Shown here in pieces: positions 4,237 through 59,625 of a stretch of 64,000 nt of DNA. A program made the translations under genes and the position numbers. Within the stretch, counting starts at the first letter, position 1. Each line of letters starts with the position of its first letter. The stretch lies in NCBI GenBank assembly GCA_905147135.1, contig LR990042.1:12081545-12145544 (forward strand). The letters run 5' to 3'. This DNA is from Blastobasis lacticolella. Its lineage: Eukaryota > Arthropoda > Insecta > Lepidoptera > Blastobasidae. The notes beneath the pieces were generated by a model. It searched no databases, was not told the DNA's origin, and saw nothing but the letters and a program-made list of their open reading frames with translations.

Positions 4237-5063
4237 TAGGGGTTGCAATGAGGAGTTTTCCAGTAGGTATTGTCAGTTGGTTTCAAAAAGCATGAAAAGA
4301 TGGCGCTCCTACAATTTAAAAATAAAATAAAATACAACCTAAACCTAAAATGTTTGTTAATCAAAACATAACTTTTAAAGGAACGTAATGTACACGGAAA
4401 TATTTTTATAAATAGGCACAATGTTCTATTTTATTACAACCTCTAAAATGGTTGAAAACTATTGATAAATACAATATTATCCAATACAACGTACTCAGTG
4501 TTTATATCCCCTTTGCTCAGAACCTTTTTCAAGCGATTATCAATTACCAAAATTGTCGGGCCGCCATCTAGTGAGTGGTTAAGAATGCTTTAGATACCTA
4601 TTGGAAAGCTCCTCATACCGATATATCTTTTCAAAACCGGGATTTTCGGTATTAACATGAGGTCTACACCGGGATCCCGGTATTTTCGGTATTTGGAGAA
4701 GTTGCTAGTAATTTATTATAAACTTTTAGTCATTATATTCTTTATTGCATAAATAGTTAGAATATTTCATACCAAAGGTTATTTTCTAGAAAAAAATCTA
4801 ATTTTAATTTCCCCTATTATAGATCCCCCATCGATAAGTATTTTCTTTTGCTATTTAAAAATTGATATTGAAGCAAACTATTAGGTATGCGTTTTGTTAG
4901 TCTACCTAGATGGTGATTAAAATATAAAACTTATTCTAATAGTGCAAAAGTAATACATAATTTTATTTTAACTGAATACCGAAATCCCGGTTTTTATAAC
5001 GACGTATTTTTAGTCCGGGATCCCGGTATTTTCGGAATCCGGGATCCCGGTTTGCTACCTCTA
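4237..5063. mobile_element. non-autonomous hAT element with 8-bp TSD, carrying a nested MITE
   Basis: The left end reads TAGGGGTTGCAA and the right end, reverse-complemented, reads TAGAGGTAGCAAACCGGG. Exact 8-bp direct repeats GTATGGAC flank it at 4229-4236 and 5064-5071, as expected for hAT transposition. Sub-terminal CCGGGATCCCGG motifs recur inside both ends (about 4635-4690 and 4980-5055). There is no transposase frame. A 369-bp MITE sits 12 bases inside the left end, so the hAT inserted first. Confidence 0.8.
4248..4616. mobile_element. MITE, TGAGGAGTTTTCCA family, copy 1
   Basis: The inverted termini are ATGAGGAGTTTTCCAGTAGG and its near-complement ending CTCCTCAT. Inside each terminus lies a GATGGCG/CGCCATC plus ACAATTT/AAATTGT block, also inverted. 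A second full copy with the same architecture is at 34800-35194. No coding capacity. It lies within the left end of the hAT element. Confidence 0.8.
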
Positions 5064-26963: not shown

Positions 26964-27028
26964 TTTCGTGAGAATCCGTCGTCTTTCATTTATTTTTTTC
27001 TATGACACATTTGACACGAGTGCTTTAT

Positions 27029-27345
27029 AAGCTACGCGTCGACTAGCCCGCACCGCACGAGCCGCACGCGCCGCACGCATCGCATTTCGGGTTGCTTTGT
27101 ATGAGTTTGTATAGGAGTGCGTTCACTACCCGCACTGGCCGCGCCGCACAGCCGCACCGCATTGTCAGTAGTTAAGCTACGCGTCGACTAGTCCGCACCG
27201 CAAGAGCCGCACGCGCCGCACGCGCCGCACGCATCGCATTGAGATATTGCTGACGTTGCTGATGGCATGGCCACACTGGCCGCACCGCACGCACCGCAAT
27301 TGCGGGCAGGGATGCCAACTGTGTATCATGGTTTGGTCTAATAAA
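27029..27345 (+). repeat. two tandem CGCACCGC GC-rich units (types I and II)
   Basis: Both units start AGCTACGCGTCGACTAG. Type I (27029-27173) has the centre TTTCGGGTTGCTTTGTATG and ends GCATTGTCAGTAGTT. Type II (27174 to about 27345) has the centre GAGATATTGCTGACGTTGC and ends GCGGGCAGGGATGCCAACTG. The type I unit is, by eye, identical over about 144 bases to the loop of the 31.2-34.0 kb palindrome. The type II unit matches 34575-34757 in inverse orientation with few differences. Direct CCGCACCGCAC motifs fill the units. No coding sense. Confidence 0.75.
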
Positions 27346-27894
27346 TGACACTTCAGAATAACGCTTAGATGGTAACCCCGATTGCTCTTTCTCTTTGCTC
27401 TAAAAAAAATTAAAGTCTTTGCTGACTGTCGGTACGGGTTATCCCTCTATATTTATAATATTAGTTCATTAAAGTATCATTTAATTTCTTGTAATGGATA
27501 TTGATGAAGACATGTTGTTTGTTGGCAGATGAAGAGGAACGTAAACCGAAATAACGTCAAGCATGGGTTCATAAAATAAATATGCAGAGACCAATATTTT
27601 TTTATTACATTCGTATGTTAAAAATCTAGTTTCATAGTTTCCGAGATATTCTCAAGCCCTATTTGACAAAACAACATACAAAGTTTAGAAGGGCTGTAGT
27701 GCCAGAAAAAGACTGGTAGTTTGTTTAAGGTAAGCATATATTATTAATTGGTATGTATTTACATATTTCCTACATTATTATTAGGTACTATTAATTATTT
27801 ACACTCCGTTGCAAAAAAACGGACAAATAGGTCAACTTTCATACAATCCTTCGAAGGCCATTTAAAATGGTAACGCGGGCAAAAGCTAAACTGT

Positions 27895-27940
27895 CATAAA
27901 AACGATTTCTACGCGGGCGTGCTTGCGGGCAAAAGCTGGT
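27895..27940 (+). mobile_element. Helitron-like 3' end, variant
   Basis: CTACGCGGGCGTGCTTGCGG GCAAAAGCTGG resembles the CTAG-ending motif at 3762-3800, with CTGG in place of CTAG. Confidence 0.3.
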
Positions 27941-28099
27941 CAAAATATATTTCCAGTTTTATTGATCTTAAAAATACTATTCTTTGTTCTATTTCAATTT
28001 CAAAACCAAACCTCAAAAACATCTTTATATCATAACATTATTACTTACTTATTTCAGATATATTACTGTTCAAATTTGTACAAGCATTCAAACCGTCTG

Positions 28100-28540
28100 C
28101 ACGAGTCGGATTGAGCAGAGCAACTATACCTACGAGGGGCCACGAGTTGCTGATACATACAAAATCAAAATGCATATTTAAAAAGCGTGTAAAGGAACAT
28201 TATGTGCCTGAATGTTATACAATACCTGTATTTATTTTATTATGTATATATGTATGTGTATTTATAAATATACTATATTGTGTGTATTTAGTATCTCATT
28301 TATAATTTATGTAGTTTATTAAATATAGATATGTTTTTAAACTAATGCGCACCTCTCATCCCCTATAATCTATAATGTCCCTCTTCTATAGGCCTGCTGG
28401 AAGAGAGTTCTTCTTAGAAATAAGTAGTGCCTGTTGTGTCGTCTTTAATTTTGTAATTTCTGTATACTATATTGTATGCAAAAATTATTATTTTTTATAT
28501 TGTGTGCAATAAATTGTTAAATAAATAAATACAACAAAGA
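28100..28540 (+). mobile_element. 5'-truncated CR1/Jockey-like LINE, 3' end only
   Basis: Translation near 28165 gives KKRVKEHYVPEC, matching KKRVKDHYLSQC at the end of the LINE ORF at 53.2 kb. The 3' UTR shares ATAGGCCTGCTGGAAGAGAG, AGTGCCTGTTG and a terminal CAATAAATTGTTAAATAAAT tail. The rest of the ORF is absent, as usual for target-primed insertion. Confidence 0.7.
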
Positions 28541-28654
28541 GTAACATCTAGGATCTACGAGCTCATCTAGCTTAAAAGGTCGTCAATTACAATCAAATTA
28601 CAATAATTTTTAGGACCTGAATGGTTTACTGTAAACATTTAAGTTTTATTCAAT

Positions 28655-28870
28655 ACTAGCAGCCGCCCCGGCTTCGCACGAGTACCACTACGGGTACACG
28701 GTTTACTTTCAAGCGAAAATTATTCGATTCCTCACACGACCGCTGCGTAGGGAGCCGACCGCGTGAGTAAGCCGCGCGGCACTTTATTTCTTGACATTGA
28801 CTCCCCTCCACGTACCCCGTGCTGCCTAGATAGTCGAGCGGACTGAGCGACGAACTGGCGACTTTTTTCT
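28655..28870 (-). mobile_element. Helitron-like 3' end with GC-rich body
   Basis: Reverse-complemented, the boundary reads GTGCGAAGCCGGGGCGGCTG CTAG then T, like the other CTAG-ending termini. About 200 bases of GC-rich sequence follow inward. The other terminus was not located. Confidence 0.35.
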
Positions 28871-30750
28871 AATATTCACATTTTTAAACTCGTGATATCT
28901 TTCGAATGGAATGTCTGAATTAATAATTCAAAAAGTTATATAAAGGTATTGAAGCAGTCGTGAATATAAAGTAATTGGTTTTGATAAGGATTATAGGTAC
29001 AAATAAAGAGCGTTTTTAGCGGCGGCATTTCAATTAAATTTTGAAAATAAAAGACTATTATTGTGACATAACTATAATAGTTAGACATATACTGTCGCAA
29101 CACTTTTTGTAGATAATGATGTGTTCTGCAAAGTCGTAGTACATTATTTTGTTCTATCATCAATAGTTTTCGCAGCACACGCGTTGTAAGGAATTTTTTG
29201 GGTATTTGTTACACCTTGGATTACATTATTGGAGTTTTAGTAATGATCCATAATTTTTTAGAAAATATAATATAGCTTATGTCACCCGGGGATAGTGTAG
29301 CTTTCCAACGGTGAAAGAATTTTTGAAGTCGGTCTTGTAGTTTCGAAGCCTATTCAATACAAACAAACAAAAAATCAATAATATTATTAATCAATATCTA
29401 CTTAGTTACTTTTGGGTTTTGAATTTTTGAGGTACTTAGGATTTGAATTTTTCTTACTAAGAAGGTTGTCAAAATAATGACCACACTACAATATTTTAGA
29501 GTAAATGTTTTATTTTAAATATCGAATTTTTATTCAATAGCTACATTATTAACGGTTTTGAAATTGCTCCCAACAGCCGTGTCATTCTATTGCTGAAAGA
29601 TAGGTATCTCCTACTATTGAGTACGTCTCAGCCTGAACTTCGAATTGTAATAGCATTATAAGAGTAGGTATAGTATTCTGTACTATACCCACTCTTATAC
29701 TAGTATTGCGCACGAAAGTTAGCTGAGTCCTGATATGTAGATCTAAAAATGCTTTACAAAGCAGACACTTTTTGTGCTGGTAAGTGTATGTCATCGCCGT
29801 CGCCGCCGCTGACACCGGGTCTATCTGATTGTCTGAGTTTGTGGCACTATATAACTCTTTACAGCGGTATGCCTATGCATACCGGCCATACGAATGGATC
29901 TGGCAAACTGCGTTTAGATTATAAAATTCTTTGGCCGGGTTTACATAAAAAGACGTAAATTCGAAAATTTCAGAACAAGGCGACTATGGAGTGACCAACT
30001 AGAAAAAGTTACTGAATTTATTAATTCTTAATATTTAGTGTGTAGCACTAAAAAATCGGGTGTTATGTTAATTTACACGTTTAATAAATTGAGTAATAAA
30101 ACGTGTAATAACACTAAGAAATAAAAACGGACCTCTTTCCTGATACAGGCAGGTTTAGGTACCAACAATCGTGACTAAGCCTTCGATATTATCCGCGATG
30201 TCTCACACCACATAAACCATACATCTAACATGTGTAAACAAGCTCAGCAATTTTGCGGGCTCAGTACTCTAGGGTGTTCCCAAGGGTAGGTGAACTAGGA
30301 ACGAAACCAGTCGAAGTCCAGATTCAAAAAAGGTATATTAAAAATTCACATCACAAATTATACACGGTACATATCACTACCGCGATGTAAAAGGTAGGCA
30401 GCGCCATCTAGTGACATCAAGCGGAACTATATATAAATGTATGACTAAAACAGTGTGATGTTAAAATACGTTCAACAATGTGCATAATATGGAAGATGCG
30501 AATATTGTAATTGAAATGGAAATAAGTCAATACAACAAGCTGAACGTTTGTTTAACTTAATGAAACTTAACAACAGTAATTCAAGTAGTAAATCAGGATT
30601 CAGGGCTAGACCCTACTCGCCGGACTCATGCAGCACGGATCCAAAATAATTGAACTTCTATGTTCTATTGCCATTTACGCTGTTTATACGAATGGTTTTT
30701 TGGCGGTAATGTGGAGGAGAGAATTCCAGCCACCAATGTTGGCAAGCGAA
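28870..30750. other. intergenic AT-rich sequence, nothing recognised
   Basis: Short open frames on both strands (up to 80 codons) show no family signature. No inverted-repeat element or repeat copy was recognised. Confidence 0.4.
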
Positions 30751-30759
30751 GATGGAGAA

Positions 30760-31157
30760 TGTGGAAAAGGGTAATTACCCACCTGGCCGAGTTGCTGTGA
30801 CCAGGGGACCGAAGTCCAATGGACGCTCTTTGGATCTTGTATATAAGCGTTGTAGATGGAACACTCCGTTAGCGCGATGTAGATTTGACAGTTGCTGTCA
30901 TGCTGATTTGTCTTGCCAACTCGTGTGTGCGAGCTCTCTTTGATTCACTATGGAGATCGCTACAGTTTCAAGATCCGCGCTACAGCTAGCCATATAGGTC
31001 TTCTTTTGGCGACGTTCAGCTTCAAACCACAGTAGATCTGTATATAATACCTGTATTTGATCCGTATATCCCCTAGTGTTGCTGATGTCCATAGGCGGCG
31101 GTAACCACTTTCCATCAGGTGGCCCGCTTGCCTGTTTCTCAGCCGTATAAAAAAAAC
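30760..31157 (+). repeat. retroposon copy ending in CCATCAGGTGGCC and poly(A)
   Basis: The 3' end GGCGGTAACCACTTTCCATC, AGGTGGCCCGCTTGCCTG and TATAAAAAAAA is the CCATCAGGTGGCC tail family. GC-richer sequence back to about 30760 probably belongs to the same insertion, but its 5' end is unclear. Confidence 0.5.
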
Positions 31158-31214
31158 TATACAAACTTCAATATGTAATAATCTCAACAGTGTGGCTTCT
31201 GCACCACCCGTTAT

Positions 31215-33982
31215 TTTATAGGTCATCAAAATAAGTATTATTTAAGCTACTCCATAGATGCTCTGTTCTAGGAACAACAAACATTGGGCCAAATATTGGC
31301 AATGTTTCCAAGTCAACCAGAACTAAATTTATTTTTCTTCAATTTGACTATTACTTATAATAAAACTTATTTTATGAAAATAGCATTTAAAAATTTACCA
31401 GTTCCTAATTTATTTTTCGCCAAAGTAAAACACTATAAAATTTCGCCACGCTGTCTCCAAACTTCGCCAGTATAGCGAAAAAATTATCCAATATGGCAAC
31501 ACTGTCAACGAGAATTTCTTTCTAAAAAGAAAAGTCTATAGTTTCGATTGCTGTATGATCCAAAATCTTTGGTTTCGAGCAATTATCTAGAACTCTCAGT
31601 CACAAATTAAAAAATACTAACAGTTGATAATAGCAGTAGGTTCGAATGGGTACTTAACAACTTATATCCTTCTCTATCAGACATGTCATATGCACCATTA
31701 AAAAAGGAAACAAAATATAGATTGTGACTCCAGCTATAAGTAGGCTCTAAAGTCGAATATATTTGCGGCAAATTCTATAGTTTAATATCCGTGTGACGTC
31801 ACGGGCCGGCCCTCAGGGTTCCCAACCCAACGATTTCTTCCACAAATTTAGGGGTATGTGTGATTAGATATTTTAGATAATGTTCATATTGTTGGGGTAT
31901 ATTTAGTGGCTTAGGTACTTGGTTTATATTTAATTTTACATAAAATTATTAAGGCAGATTATATTATAGCTTTAGACGCTGTCTAAAAAGTGAAGCGACT
32001 TAGGAAATTATAAGAATGATTGACATCAACAAGTAATCAACCTGATTTAGAATAATGAAGACGTCCATCTTTTAGCTCCTATCTTGTTGTATACAGACGG
32101 TCCTCATTATTCAATCAGTTATGCTTAGGTATCTACTTGTTGATTTCAATCAATCTTATAATTTCGCTTGTTGCTAAACTTCTTAGACAGAGTTTAACAC
32201 ATTAAGTTCACAGATGCTGTACGCGTACAAGGAAGGAGATTAATGTCTTAGAGGCCAGCTCAGGACATTTCTTTTGTTGTAAAATTGGTCAGCAGAGTTT
32301 CCTGTTTTTTGATTTACGTGCCAAGCGTGGAGTTTGTGACAAACCCCCCCACTAGTTTATAGCAGGCTTAAATACTGAAGTGCAGTTATAATTTAAACTT
32401 ACAATTTTTTTCTTATATTTATGGGTAAATATTTTAGGATTTACTCTCCCATTTCAGGCAAATAACGCCTTTTTTTCTTGTATCCCTGTCCGCATCGCCC
32501 GCATTTTATGCTGGTATCCCTAACTACTGACAATGCGGTGCGGCTGTGCGGCGCGGCCAGTGCGGGTAGTGAACGCACTCCTATACAAACTCATACAAAG
32601 CAACCCGAAATGCGATGCGTGCGGCGCGTGCGGCTCGTGCGGTGCGGGCTAGTCGACGCGTAGCTTTAGGGATACCAGCATAAAATGCGGGCGATGCGGA
32701 CAGGGATACAAGAAAAAAAGGCGTTATTTGCCTGAAATGGGAGACTAAGTCCTAAAATATTTACCCATAAATATAAGGAAAAAATTGTAAGTTTAAATTG
32801 TAACTGCACATCAGTATTTAAGCCTGCTATAAACTAGTGGGGGGGTTTGTCACAAACTCCACGCTTGGCACGTAAATCAAAAAACAGGAAACGCTGCTGA
32901 CCAATTTTATAACAAAAGAAATGTCCTGAGCTGGCCTCTAAGACATTAATCTCCTTCCTTGTACGCGTACAACATCTGTGAACTTAATGTGTTAAACTCT
33001 GTCTAAGAAGTTTAGCAACCAGCGAAATTATAAGATTGATTGAAATCAACAAGTAGATACCTAAGCATAACTGATTGAATAATAATGAGGACCGTCTGTA
33101 TACAACATGATAGGAGCTAAAAGATGGACGTCTTCATTATTCTAAATCAGGTTGATTACTTGTTGATGTCAATCAAACTTATAATTTCCTAAGTCGCTTC
33201 ACTTTTTAGACAGCGTCTAAAGCTATATTCTAATCTGCCTTAATCATTTTATGTAAAATTAAATATAAACCAAAGTACCTAAGCCACTAAATATACCCCA
33301 ATAATATGAACATTATCTAAAATATCTAATCCCACATACCCCTAAATTTGTGGAAGAAATCGCTGGGTTGGGTACCCTGAGGGCCGGCCCGTGACGTCAC
33401 ACGGATATTATACTATAGAATTTGCTGCAAATATTTTCGACTTTAGAGCCTACTTACAGCTTGAGTCACAATCTATATTTTGTTTCCTTTTTTAATGGTG
33501 CATATGACATGTCTGATAGAGAAGGATATAAGTTGTTAAGTACCCATTCGAACCTTCTGCTATTGCCAATTGTTACTTTTTTTAAATTTGTGACTGAGAG
33601 TTCTAGATTATTGCTCAAAACCAAAGATTTTGGAGCATAGAGCAATCGAAAATATAGTCTTCTCTTTTGAAGAAATAAATTCTCGTTGACAGTGTTGCCA
33701 CATTGGATAATTTTTTCGTCATACTGGCGAAATTGGGAGATAGCGTGGAGAAATTTTTTAATGTGTTTTTTGACTTTGGCGAAAAATAAATTAAGAAGCG
33801 TTATTTTTATAAAACTATTTTCATACAATAGGCAATATTATATTTAAAATAAATATTATGACGAAGAATAAATTGAGAACTGGTTGTCATGGAACCATCG
33901 CCAATAATTAAACTGTTTGTTGCTTTTTGAACAGAAGATCTATGGAGTAACTTCAATAATACTTCATTTAACGACCTATAAA
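31215..33982. repeat. 2.77-kb near-perfect palindrome with 146-bp GC-rich loop
   Basis: The left arm 31215-32521 (about 1307 bases) is complementary to the right arm 32668-33982 (about 1315 bases). Examples of paired blocks: TTTATAGGTC with GACCTATAAA at the outer ends; TGACGTCACGGGCCGGCCCT at 31796 with its complement at 33379; GGTATCCCT with AGGGATACC at the inner ends. By eye the inner two-thirds of the arms is about 95% identical, while the outer 300 bases diverge more and carry indels. A frame of 120 codons in the right arm (33466-33828, minus) has a broken counterpart in the left arm, and neither resembles a protein I know. It may be a foldback transposon, two copies inserted head to head, or an assembly artefact. 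Confidence 0.9.
32522..32667 (-). repeat. CGCACCGC type I unit forming the palindrome loop
   Basis: The spacer between the arms is a single type I unit in reverse orientation. It reads from AACTACTGACAATGCGG to GACGCGTAGCTTT and appears identical over about 144 bases to 27029-27173. It sits exactly between GGTATCCCT and AGGGATACC. Confidence 0.85.
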
Positions 33983-34129
33983 GGGCCGGGTATATAGAAA
34001 CTAGACCTCTATGATTATTACATATTTATCATTTGGTACTTGGACGAGGACGTGATTGTCAACACCAACTTCATCTGTTTGTCAAAAGTGACACTTTACA
34101 AGAAGGCGACTTTAGTTCTGATTTCGGCC

Positions 34130-34570
34130 ACGTCCAAAATATTCATGGAGGGCTATAATACATACATATAGCTTGTCAAAAAGATGATGCTGCTGATGTT
34201 GCTCTATGCCCTCCCATTGATTTCAAAAGGAAATTCTGAACGCGTCTCCTTGATTGATAACACACCTCTCCTTGGGAGATACAAAAATGAATGGGTTGAC
34301 ATCGCTGAGTCGGACATGAGAGCCAACCGAGGCTTACGACGTGAGGATACCGAACATCAGGCGAATTGGAGGAGAGAAGAAGCAGGATAGGGGTTCCTGG
34401 CAGAAGCCAGGATTGACTGTTTGGATGATGGTCAAGATTATGAATATTGTATCATTTAGATTTCACCCGATTTCTTAGTGGTAAACACTAGATATTATCA
34501 ATAATTATTTTCAAAATCTTAGATCGTTGGCGACTCCATAGTCGTCTTGTTTTGATATTTTTATAGTGTA
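34130..34570. other. intergenic, nothing recognised
   Basis: A 68-codon frame at 34184-34390 with basic/acidic composition (NRGLRREDTEHQANWRREEAG) resembles small frames common in LINE debris but lacks any diagnostic motif. Confidence 0.3.
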
Positions 34571-34574
34571 TTAG

Positions 34575-34757
34575 TGCCAAAAATTTTTTTACCAAATCAT
34601 GACACACAGTTGGCAACCCTGCCCGCAATTGCGGCTCGTGCGGTGCGGCCAGTGTGGCCATGCCATCAGCAACGTCAGCAATATCTCAATGCGATGCGTG
34701 CGGCGCGTGCGGCGCGTGCGGCTCTTGCGGTGCGGGCTAGTCGACGCGTAGCTATAG
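34575..34757 (-). repeat. CGCACCGC type II unit, inverted copy
   Basis: ACACAGTTGGCAACCCTGCC is followed by CGCAATTGCGG and then the GC-rich body to GACGCGTAGCTATAG. Reverse-complemented, it matches 27174-27345 closely, including the non-GC-rich extension beyond the body. Confidence 0.75.
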
Positions 34758-34799: not shown

Positions 34800-35194
34800 A
34801 TGAGCAGTTTTCCAATAGGTATCTAAAGCATTCCTAACCACTCCCTAGATGGCGCCCCGACAATTTTGGTAATTGATAATCGCTTGAAATAGGTTTTTAG
34901 CAAAGAGGATATAAACACTGGATACGTTGTTTTGGATAATATTGTATTTATCAATAGGTTTCAACCATTTTAGAAGTTGTAATAAATTATTACAAACAGA
35001 ACAAACATCAATTTGACTGAGTTAATTCGTTTCATGGACACTAGAATAAAGAATGGACGCAATACAAATATGAAAGGTTTGTATTAAAACACATTTCGTT
35101 GAACCTTTTGGTAAAAAATTACCAAAATTGTAGGAGCGCCATCTTTTGAGGCTTTTTGAAACCAATTGACAATACCTACTGGAAAACTCCTCAT
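34800..35194. mobile_element. MITE, TGAGGAGTTTTCCA family, copy 2
   Basis: Ends ATGAGCAGTTTTCCAATAGG and ACTGGAAAACTCCTCAT with inner CGCCCCGACAATTTT and AAAATTGTAGGAGCGCC blocks. The copy is inverted relative to 4248-4616 and shares most of its interior (for example TGATAATCGCTTGAAA and ATTTATCAATAGG). Confidence 0.8.
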
Positions 35195-35456
35195 TGCTGA
35201 ATCCAAAGAGATACTATATATTGGCTGAGTCCACGGGCTGTCCCTAATGAAATGTACAAAATATCTAATGCTTTGTGGGGAAGTTTTCTGATTTTTCAAT
35301 GCAATATATAAAAGCCAAAACCAAAGGTTTCATGTACCAAAGCTTTAGTATCTACAAACCGACAAGGACCATGAATACGTAACGGCATGACATAGTTACT
35401 CCCAGAAACAAGAACCTGATAAAATTAAAACGTGATAAGCACAGCAGTGCCTACCT

Positions 35457-52895: not shown

Positions 52896-54512
52896 TGTGT
52901 TATTTATTTATTTATTTAACAATTTATTGTACACAAGAAAATTAAAGATATAGTACAAATTAGATATTAGCCAACAGGCACTACTTATCTCTAAAAATAA
53001 ATCTCTTCCAGTAGGCCTACAAAAAGAGAGATATGATAAATATACGCAGATACGACGTACACAATAATTATATACTATAAATAAATACATACATAATATT
53101 CTATACATACTAATAGGTATATATGAATAAAATAAACATATACTATATTAATACATAATATGTATTAAGGCATTGTAATACGTCTAGGCACACTGAGATA
53201 GATAGTGATCCTTTACACGCTTTTTATATATATGCATAGATTGTCTGTCACGTACTTCGTGCGGAAGAGAATTCCACAGTCTTGCTGCATGAACAGTGAA
53301 GGAATAGGAAAGGAAATCGGAATGGTGAGCAGGACTTGTTAGCATCGATCTTACGCTAGAACGACAAGGCTTATCTTGTGGACGGGCAAAGTGAAACCGT
53401 TCACAGAGGTATGAGGGAGCCGGAGAGATATACAGGACTTTATAAAGGGTGGATAGGATATGAGCATTCCTGCGTAGGCGGATTGGGAGCCATTTGAGCT
53501 GTTTTCGGTAACTTGAAATATTTGCGCAATCCATAAATAAATCGGATACATAAATTTTGAAGGCGCTCCAATTTGTTCAATATCTTCTCAGTGGCATCAG
53601 CGTAATCAAGAAGAGGAAGAAGAAGAGTTTGGACCAGAGAGATTTTAGTTTTGAAAGGTAAGGAACTTTGGAGGCATTTGAGAGAGTGAAACGAGTAATG
53701 TATTCTCTTGCTGACCTCATTGACGTGAGATACCGAGGACAAATTTGAATCAAATACGAGGCCAAGATTCTTTGCAGATTTGCTCAGTGGGATTGGAATT
53801 CCATCGTATGTAATTTGCGGGACACCATTGACATTACCAAGCTGCCTACACATATACGGGCTTCCGATGAGAAGAGCCTGAGACTTTTTGGGGTTTACAA
53901 GCAAGCCAAACGATTCAGCCCAGGCAAATATACGCTGCAAATCATTATTAATGCAGGCAAAAGCATCTTCAATGTCTGTTATTTTAAAGTGGTGGTAAAC
54001 CTGCAAGTCGTCTGCATAGAGATGAAAATTGGAAGAAATGACTGAGGTAACCGAGAACACACCAATCTGAGAAGACCTCATCAGAGTGGACCCGCTGCAG
54101 GCGACCGTGAAGGTACGAAACGAACCATGCTACCACAGAAAAGAGATATGTTAAAAGAGCGAAGAATAGCAAGAAGAACATCAAAGTCTACAGAATTGAA
54201 GGCACTGCTAAAGTCAAGCAATGTTAAAATGGTAAGAGACTTATTTTCCATCGCAAAGCGGATATCATCAGTGACTTTTAGCAGTGCTGTTACGGTACTG
54301 TGCCCTGGTCGGAAGCCAGATTGGAAAGGAGAAAGTAGACAGTTTGATGACAGGTACTGCGTGAGCTGACTGTGGATAATGTGCTCTTGGACCTTTGAGA
54401 GAAATGGTAATAGTGATATGGGACGAAAATCAGAAAAGAAAGCGGGTTTGGATGTTTTCGGAAGGGGGAAAACGTTAGCAAGTTTCCAAGTTATGTATGT
54501 AGACACATGCGT
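52896..54512 (-). mobile_element. 5'-truncated CR1/Jockey-like LINE
   Basis: The minus-strand copy runs from a reverse transcriptase fragment (54506) to a 3' UTR ending in a (TAAA)n-like tail at about 52905-52920. The 3' UTR shares CCTGTTGGCTAATATCTAAT-side motifs and GTAGGCCTACTGGAAGAG with the tails at 10.53-10.69 and 28.1-28.5 kb. It is the longest LINE copy in the window. The endonuclease domain is absent. Confidence 0.8.
53184..54506 (-). pseudogene. LINE reverse transcriptase, frameshifted fragment
   Basis: Three minus-strand frames cover the protein in order. The first (54506-54081) has NVFPLPKTSKP, DFRPISLLPFLSKV, FQSGFRPGHSTVTALLK and motif A LLDFSSAFNSVD. The second (54081-53440) has the catalytic box HLYADDLQVY, then LLVNPKKSQALLIGSPY and KNLGLVFDSNL. 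The third (53534-53184) has the C-terminal AARLWNSLPHEVR. The usual GVPQG motif between motif A and YADD is not visible, and the frame changes near 54050, consistent with an internal deletion. A second shift lies near 53550. The enzyme would copy LINE RNA at the target site; this copy is inactive. Confidence 0.85.
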
Positions 54513-54519
54513 ACCTATA

Positions 54520-55640
54520 CCATTACGGCTTTCTTCCTATTCTTTCTTTCTCTAGTACCTTTATGACTTCTAGATAGAGAGAGGTTCTCAATTTCATTAT
54601 CTATCTTACATTTGACCAAAGTTTCTACTAGGTATAGAGGTACCTGAACGTATACAAAATACACGATATTTTACAAATGGAGATCATATGTTTCTCGCCT
54701 AATGAAATTGGTTATGGAAGTGTAGACGTAAGAACAAAGAGAAAATCTGGACCGTTATCAATAATTTGTTAATTTTTTTACAAAATAAAGTCGCAGAACT
54801 ACGCGTAATTTTTATATCAACCATACAAACGTATACCCTCAACCTAGGATCAAGAATCAAATGGATATGACAAGTGCGTATACCCGAAAGGGACAGACTC
54901 AAAGTACCAGTGTTGCAACCTCTACCAACATGTAGCCCCAAAATGTTTGAAAAATCACCTATAATATTATAAGCTAAATGAGACAGTACGTATCAGACGT
55001 ACATCATGTGAATAAATTTACTAGAGTGCGCGTCATAACGAATAAATCAGTGATAAAATATACTCTTTACTGCGTAAGGTCTTTGCAATTTTTACAAGAC
55101 TATTTAATTTAGTTCCAGTTCATTATCTTCGCGCACTCTATACTTCGGTTTTTAATTAAAACAAAGACATGAGCACAAAGCGTCACGTACGATGAGTGTT
55201 CAAAACAGAGAGCAAAATATATCATTCATTTTAGACCAAAAACTCGAAAGTGCCAGCCAAAAAGAACTATTGTAGGTAATTTTCAGATAGAGTATACAAT
55301 TCCTAACATTTTATATGATGGCGTCAAATCTGTAGGTACGTAAACCAACACCTCTATGTATCACTGGGCGTACAGCAATAGATAAATTTAGGGCCCATAT
55401 AAAAAATTAATACCCCACAACTAAGATAATTTATCAGTACCACAGCTGGTATCACTAAAACGCTTGTAACCCGAACAAATAAAAAGTATCATAAAATACC
55501 GGACTGAAGCTTGACTTCACTTATTCCAAATTTGGTCCAACAGGACAACAAATAATGTCTTCGTCCTTTTCATTCTTAGCAAATTTTGTATGTTGTGATC
55601 TCGTTCATGCATGGTATTATTATTAGCTTGTCATCTCTAT
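54520..55640. other. intergenic sequence, nothing recognised
   Basis: AT-rich with one minus-strand frame of 80 codons lacking any domain signature. Confidence 0.4.
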
Positions 55641-58797: not shown

Positions 58798-59625
58798 CCT
58801 TCTAGCGTTTAGTCTCAAAATGTCCCAGTTGCAAAATGTCCACTAGTAAAAAAATGTCCAAGTCGCAAAATGTCCAAGTTGCAAAATGTCCAGGTTGCAT
58901 AATGTCCAAGTTGCAAAATGTCCAGGTTGCAAAATGTCCAGGTTGCAAAATGTCCCGGTTGCAAAATGTCCAGGTCGCAAAATGTCCACATTGTAAAATA
59001 TCACTATATAAGTCGCTAAATGTTGTACACACTTACTACTCATGAGTTGCCGCTTATATTTATAAATTTCACGATATATTGCGTATTTATATATTTTTTT
59101 TATATATCACTAAGGCGGAAAACAAGTTTACGGCCTGCCTGATGGCAAGCAGTCACCGCAGCCTAATACCGGATAAGAACAGGAGCGGCAGGATAGGGCT
59201 CGCTGCAAATTGGTTTACTTATCCATATTTTTCCATACACACTGATGCCCCTGGTATTGCAAACGTCCATAGGCTGTGGCGACTGCTTGCCATCAGGCAG
59301 GCCGTAAGCTTGTTTTCCGTCTTAGTGATATAAAAAAATACTATAAATACATAAATATAAAAAAAATATATTATAATATATCGTGAAATATATAAATATA
59401 AGCGGCAACTCATGAGTAGTAAGTGTGTACAACATTTAGCGACCGATATAGTGATATTTTACAATGTGGACATTTTGCGACCTGGACATTTTGCAACTTG
59501 GACATTTTGCAACCTGGACATTTTGCAACTTGGACATTATGCAACCTGGACATTTTGCAACTTGGACATTTTTTTACCAGTGGACATTTTGCAACTGGGA
59601 CATTTTGAGACTAAACGCCTTCTAG
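58798..59625. mobile_element. foldback element with 16-bp minisatellite arms and 8-bp TSD
   Basis: The element is 58806-59617 (812 bp). Its ends CGTTTAGTCTCAAAATG and CATTTTGAGACTAAACG are exact inverted repeats, and identical 8-bp duplications CCTTCTAG flank it (58798-58805, 59618-59625). Each arm is a tandem array of TTGCAAAATGTCCAGG-like 16-base units: about 12 in the left arm (58812-59014) and 10 in the right (about 59450-59612). Inside, CATGAGTTGCCGCTTATATT and its complement continue the pairing. The core (59105-59335) holds two copies of the CCATCAGG tail family facing each other. Frames through the arrays are repeat translations, not genes. Confidence 0.9.

What the first reader, a model, noticed from the sequence alone, without database searches (positions are those of the whole stretch)
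31215..33982. 2.77-kb palindrome with a loop that is a separate GC-rich element
Two arms of about 1.3 kb face each other exactly around a 146-bp spacer. The spacer is a complete CGCACCGC type I unit that looks identical over about 144 bases to a unit 5.5 kb away (27029-27173), while the arms have diverged by several percent. The loop may have arrived later, been refreshed by gene conversion, or be what drove the inverted duplication. The structure could be a very large foldback transposon not yet described, or two head-to-head copies. An assembly fold-back artefact must be excluded, though arm divergence argues against a simple read-through artefact.
Basis: partly seen in the sequence, partly recalled or inferred. 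Interest (0 to 1): 0.8.

Follow-up and report, generated by a model that had tools for sequence, protein, structure and literature searches.

The report
Transposon nested backwards inside its relative
The 2.8-kb palindrome marks the place where one copy of a cut-and-paste DNA transposon jumped, in the opposite direction, into a related copy; its loop is just the end of the newcomer, so this is an ordinary nested insertion.

Summary
The palindrome is real (arms 31170-32523 and 32666-34026, 90.8% alike; loop 32521-32666 identical to 27029-27174), but it is not a foldback transposon and its loop is not a separate element. The arm recurs in the genome as one end of a longer element that stops with the same 146-bp GC-rich unit. 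In the window, element A (27175-32665, +) is inserted in opposite orientation into element B (34753-32669 plus 27171-27030, -). A is flanked by TTA/TTA, B by ATA/ATA; taking A out restores B as in two intact B copies elsewhere. The loop is A's 3' end; the identical unit 5.3 kb away is B's own 3' end, cut off by A. The arms differ by 9% because A and B are different variants of one family. Terminal inverted repeats, TWA duplications and a 3.0-kb relative with the same ends and a DDE_Tnp_4 region place the family in PIF/Harbinger. One extra: the same internal TTA appears hit at three loci, far above uniform expectation, which hints at a self-insertion hot spot.

The parts
27175..32665 (+). Element A, inserted copy, 5491 bp, no recognised coding sequence
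   Evidence: ends and flanks; shared with other copies; frames
27172..27174 (.). TTA, left target-site duplication of A (within B)
32666..32668 (.). TTA, right target-site duplication of A (within B)
32669..34753 (-). Element B, host copy, main part with its 5' end at 34753
27030..27171 (-). Element B, 3'-terminal 142 bp, cut off from the rest by A (the 'identical unit 5.5 kb away')
27027..27029 (.). ATA, left target-site duplication of B
34754..34756 (.). ATA, right target-site duplication of B
32521..32665 (+). Loop = 3'-terminal GC-rich unit of A, ending in the terminal inverted repeat
27175..27344 (+). 5'-terminal GC-rich unit of A; its first 55 bp are the inverted repeat of A's 3' end (92.7%)
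34591..34753 (-). 5'-terminal GC-rich unit of B
31170..32523 (+). Left arm of the palindrome = part of A
32666..34026 (-). Right arm of the palindrome = part of B
30699..30964 (.). about 266 bp inside A that 19 of the 20 other A copies spanning the point lack (present in L010)
   Evidence: exact ends not determined

Best explanation
A non-coding PIF/Harbinger-type DNA transposon copy (A, 5.5 kb) was cut and pasted, by a transposase supplied elsewhere, into a TTA 142 bp from the 3' end of another copy of the same family (B), in opposite orientation. This laid A's 3' part directly against B's inverted 3' part. These two are the arms; A's terminal GC-rich unit lies between them as the loop; B's own terminal unit was left on the far side of A. 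Shown: both elements and their ends, a duplication at each level, the restored empty site, other copies of both variants. Inferred: the source of the transposase, and that B came before A (which nesting implies).
For: A has TTA on both sides and B has ATA on both sides. With A and one TTA removed, B aligns in one piece through the junction to intact B copies in L021 (97.2%) and L018 (96.3%), and the junction letters are the same. The left arm is 97.1-98.8% like the other A copies and the right arm 97.3-97.4% like the two B copies, so the 9% between the arms is the distance between two variants. The unit ends 21 of 23 fetched copies in full. A prediction was met: at L011, a second palindrome-like case, the missing part of the interrupted copy was found before A's 5' end (L029), with TTA on both sides. 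In 22 of 30 TIR pairs the flanking triplets agree. A same-ended 3.0-kb copy carries a DDE_Tnp_4 region.
Against: In 8 of the 30 TIR pairs the triplets disagree (P 0.008 for 22 or more by chance), and L061, read directly, disagrees too. B's triplet is ATA, not TWA. No read data were available, so absence of A in other individuals was not seen. In the L011 test a 20-bp string across the restored junction was found in the window's arm, a 40-bp one was not found exactly.
Confidence: 0.97

Rival explanations
1. A large foldback transposon whose 1.3-kb arms and loop move as one 2.77-kb unit.
For: Long inverted arms around a short loop. A second place, L011, also shows inverted arms around the unit.
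Against: The arms are not the ends of a mobile unit: both repeats run on outwards, A to 27175 and B to 34753. In the fetched loci the arm occurs mostly as one end of a longer element without an inverted partner next to it. L011 is itself explained by nesting at a different point. The duplications lie at A's and B's ends.
Confidence: 0.01
2. Assembly fold-back artefact.
For: Inverted arms around a loop are the usual form of such an artefact; no reads were available here.
Against: The arms differ by 9% and match two different variants found elsewhere; two levels of target-site duplication and a restorable empty site would not arise from read-through.
Confidence: 0.01
3. The loop is an independent element that inserted into, or was copied by gene conversion into, the centre of an older palindrome.
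For: The unit is at least 99.3% alike across A and B copies while their arms differ by about 9%, so some exchange or strong constraint on the unit is possible.
Against: The unit follows the arm in single copies and its far end is the transposon's inverted repeat. Its other copy in the window is the missing end of B.
Confidence: 0.01

Closest known systems
PIF/Harbinger DNA transposons (PHIS superfamily; PMC4482050, passages read) and their non-coding derivatives
   Same: Terminal inverted repeats, 3-bp TWA target-site duplication, DDE_Tnp_4 transposase in a same-ended relative, internal-deletion variants of many lengths.
   Different: No Myb/SANT protein was found in the one coding relative examined (4 open pieces); the window's two copies code for nothing recognised; B's duplication is ATA.
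Nested insertions of PIF/Harbinger elements and MITEs into related elements (PMC2213677, passages; Jiang and Wessler 2001, seen only as a reference entry, content recalled)
   Same: A copy of a family interrupts another copy of the family.
   Different: Here the copies are opposed and the site lies 142 bp from the end, which happens to make a long palindrome with a short loop.
Foldback transposons
   Same: Long inverted arms around a loop.
   Different: The arms are not the ends of one mobile unit; they come from two insertions.
Self-insertion of P-element constructs in Drosophila (PMC4744444, passages)
   Same: A transposon inserting into its own sequence.
   Different: Natural copies of another superfamily; one site repeatedly used.

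Membership tests
PIF/Harbinger | 3-bp TWA target-site duplication | tested here: met
   A: TTA/TTA; 22 of 30 TIR pairs agree, 8 do not (the search pattern itself required TWA, so 50% is the chance level); B has ATA/ATA instead.
PIF/Harbinger | Terminal inverted repeats | tested here: met
   55 bp, 92.7% in A and 94.5% in B; 123 + 120 genome-wide places of TWA plus 17-bp TIR, 0 in the reversed control.
PIF/Harbinger | DDE transposase of the Harbinger type in an element with these ends | tested here: met
   L060, 3009 bp with the same TIRs and TAA/TAA, 96-97% like B at both ends, DDE_Tnp_4 at 60 bits, cut-off 24.8; the region holds one stop.
PIF/Harbinger | Second protein with Myb/SANT domain | tested here: inconclusive
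   4 open pieces of L060 scanned, no such match; introns and other copies not examined.
Foldback transposon | The inverted arms are the two ends of the mobile unit, flanked by its target-site duplication | tested here: not met
   The repeats continue to 27175 and 34753 and the duplications lie there.
Assembly fold-back artefact | Arms are copies of one sequence, alike apart from sequencing error | tested here: not met
   90.8% identity; each arm matches a different variant elsewhere.
MITE | Non-coding and at most about 800 bp (size limit as in PMC9033116, passages) | tested here: not met
   A 5491 bp, B about 2.2 kb; shortest of 30 TIR pairs 1600 bp.

The most novel reading that the evidence does not exclude
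The family has a self-insertion hot spot: its transposase repeatedly picks one TTA about 142 bp inside the 3' end of its own elements, so new copies interrupt older ones at a fixed place. Such self-targeting would spare the host and would build large palindromes as a by-product. Three apparently independent cases (window, C9, C19) stand against 144 intact sites, where uniform choice among TTA/TAA sites predicts about 0.001.
Probability: 0.5. Interest if true: 0.35.

Novelty: new member of a known kind. Interest (0 to 1): 0.18.

Why it matters
It turns a striking 2.8-kb palindrome into a fully accounted nested insertion and removes the need for a new class of foldback transposon. It also shows how an insertion at a favoured internal site can create a large palindrome, and offers a countable case of possible self-targeting in a PIF/Harbinger family.

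Tried and rejected
Rejected: foldback transposon, assembly fold-back, separate loop element (reasons in the rival explanations). While only the shared 3' end was known I considered other classes of element; the inverted repeats and 3-bp duplications ended that. My first estimate of A's 5' end rested on L012, a truncated copy, and was corrected.

Coding capacity: the longest stop-to-stop frame inside A has 96 codons and inside B 123. Three frames of A and B were scanned with Pfam; two gave only matches far below cut-off (E 0.055 and 0.08), one none. The other frames were not scanned.

The 17-bp TIR has no exact match in the viral contigs. The arm-side junction pattern, meant as a second count of the hot spot, did not complete, nor was a relaxed TIR count. 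So the far sides of the C9 and C19 inserts at the hot-spot site are unchecked. Literature searches that ran; I make no claim that the hot spot is absent from print.

Full report
Observation. The two arms and the loop exist as described. Arms 31170-32523 and 32666-34026 align inverted at 90.8% over 1366 columns. The 146-bp loop, 32521-32666, is identical in inverse orientation to 27029-27174. Identity is highest next to the loop and falls outwards.

The arm is a dispersed repeat. The window lies on contig C3 of a 577-Mb genome. A search with the left arm listed 41 matches with E = 0, the window's own included, at 92-100% over 991-1311 bp; only 40 of 1429 first-look candidates were scored, so this is a lower bound. 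Twenty loci were fetched (L009-L028), chosen as best matches. In them the arm is followed directly by the GC-rich 'loop' unit: of 23 copies, 21 carry it in full at 99.3-100% and 2 carry part. Beyond it the flanks differ from copy to copy, apart from cases where another family copy follows. So the unit is the 3' end of an element and not a thing of its own. Upstream, most of the fetched copies share sequence far beyond the arm; L009 and L012 are cut short. Where the 5' end was reached it carries a second GC-rich unit whose first 55 bp are the inverted repeat of the 3' end.

Two elements in the window. Element A, plus strand, runs 27175-32665 and is flanked by TTA (27172-27174, 32666-32668). Element B, minus strand, starts at 34753, runs down to 32669 and continues at 27171-27030; it is flanked by ATA (27027-27029, 34754-34756). 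Taking A and one TTA out joins the two parts of B, and the joined sequence matches intact B copies in L021 (97.2%) and L018 (96.3%) in one alignment that passes through the junction. A sits in B in opposite orientation, 142 bp from B's 3' end. That alone makes the palindrome: A's 3' part, A's terminal unit (the loop), B's inverted 3' part. The identical unit 5.3 kb away is B's own end. The left arm is 97.1-98.8% like the other A copies and the right arm 97.3-97.4% like the two B copies; the 9% between the arms is the difference between two variants. A and B share about 163 bp at the 5' end (96%) and about 1.5 kb at the 3' end (92%); apart from a 99-bp stretch at 77-81%, their middles do not align.

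A prediction that was met. At L011 an A copy is also followed by an inverted, shorter arm. Nesting predicts the rest of that arm and its unit, inverted, just before A's 5' end. The stretch fetched to test this (L029) has that: unit, arm 988-1309, then A, with TTA on both sides. A 20-bp string across the restored junction occurs in the window's arm; a 40-bp one does not occur exactly.

Family. The motif TWA plus the 17-bp TIR occurs 123 + 120 times, and 0 times as reversed control. Of the 243 places 100 are listed; 30 plus/minus neighbours under 7 kb form pairs of 1.6 to 5.9 kb. In 22 of 30 the triplets agree, in 8 they do not (P 0.008 against one half). Read directly at both ends, 10 of 11 agree: window A and B, L011, L013, L016, L017, L025, L037/L038, L060 and the outer ends at C9 agree, L061 does not. 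L018 and L024 gave no readable 5' end, and L021's 5' end is rearranged; these three were set aside. One DDE_Tnp_4 match of 152 in the genome search falls inside a listed TIR pair. That 3.0-kb copy (L060) has TAA/TAA and is 96-97% like B over both ends; of 4 open pieces scanned, one matches DDE_Tnp_4 at 60 bits, cut-off 24.8, and no Myb/SANT match was seen. The region holds one stop, so it is described as a broken coding copy. TWA duplications, about 4.1-kb coding elements and two proteins are the PIF/Harbinger features given in PMC4482050 (passages). A and B show no recognised coding sequence (3 frames scanned).

Self-insertion at one site. The exact junction made by an insertion at the TTA between arm and unit, seen from the unit side, occurs at three places: the window, C9:4783672 and C19:10058390 (reversed control 0). 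The inserts begin with different ends or belong to a different variant, and the host units have different flanks and triplets (ATA, TAA, TTA), so the cases look independent. The far side of the inserts at C9 and C19 was not checked, because the arm-side search did not complete. The intact site occurs 144 times. With 250 insertions spread evenly over about 33 million TTA/TAA sites (density taken from the window), 0.001 such events are expected; for two or more, i.e. leaving the window out, P is about 6e-7, or 1e-5 with 1000 insertions. The uniform model is too simple, since PIF/Harbinger elements prefer an extended 9-bp target (PMC2836001, passages) and I did not build this family's consensus. 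For mPing, PMC10288884 reports no insertion hot spots in plants and raises self-insertion as a possible reason for size effects (passages). At C6:12292260/12292395 a similar joint lies about ten bases nearer the end. Copies also stand end to end with only TTA- or TAA-like letters between them at L018 and L021.

Verdict. An ordinary nested insertion in a PIF/Harbinger family, shown by duplications at two levels and by the restored empty site. The possible self-insertion hot spot is the only part worth a specialist's further look.

Noticed in passing
58805-59618: A second, shorter palindrome (814 bp, 78% self-complementary) whose arms hold tandem copies of a roughly 16-bp AAAATGTCC-type motif; by form closer to a true foldback element than the finding itself.
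   Followed up: no
30699-30964: About 266 bp inside element A, absent from 19 of the 20 other A copies that span the point, present in L010, where its first part also occurs a second time.
   Followed up: partly
31972-32197: A 226-bp imperfect inverted repeat inside the arm itself (64-bp arms, 81%), present in both A and B copies.
   Followed up: no
4245-4616 and 34800-35197: A pair of inverted dispersed repeats (73 bp at 96%, 190 bp at 92%) 30 kb apart, the right one just outside element B.
   Followed up: no
L018 4450-4455 and L021 2857-2860: A and B copies stand end to end, 3' end to 5' end, with only a shared TTA/TAA-like triplet or so between them: insertion next to an existing copy.
   Followed up: partly
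genome contig C8: In the listed DDE_Tnp_4 matches, contig C8 is by far the most frequent, many with open frames of about 300 codons; cause not examined.
   Followed up: no
53184-54536: Frames on the minus strand with a weak reverse-transcriptase match (RVT_1, E 1.4e-5, below the curated cut-off): remains of a retroelement.
   Followed up: no
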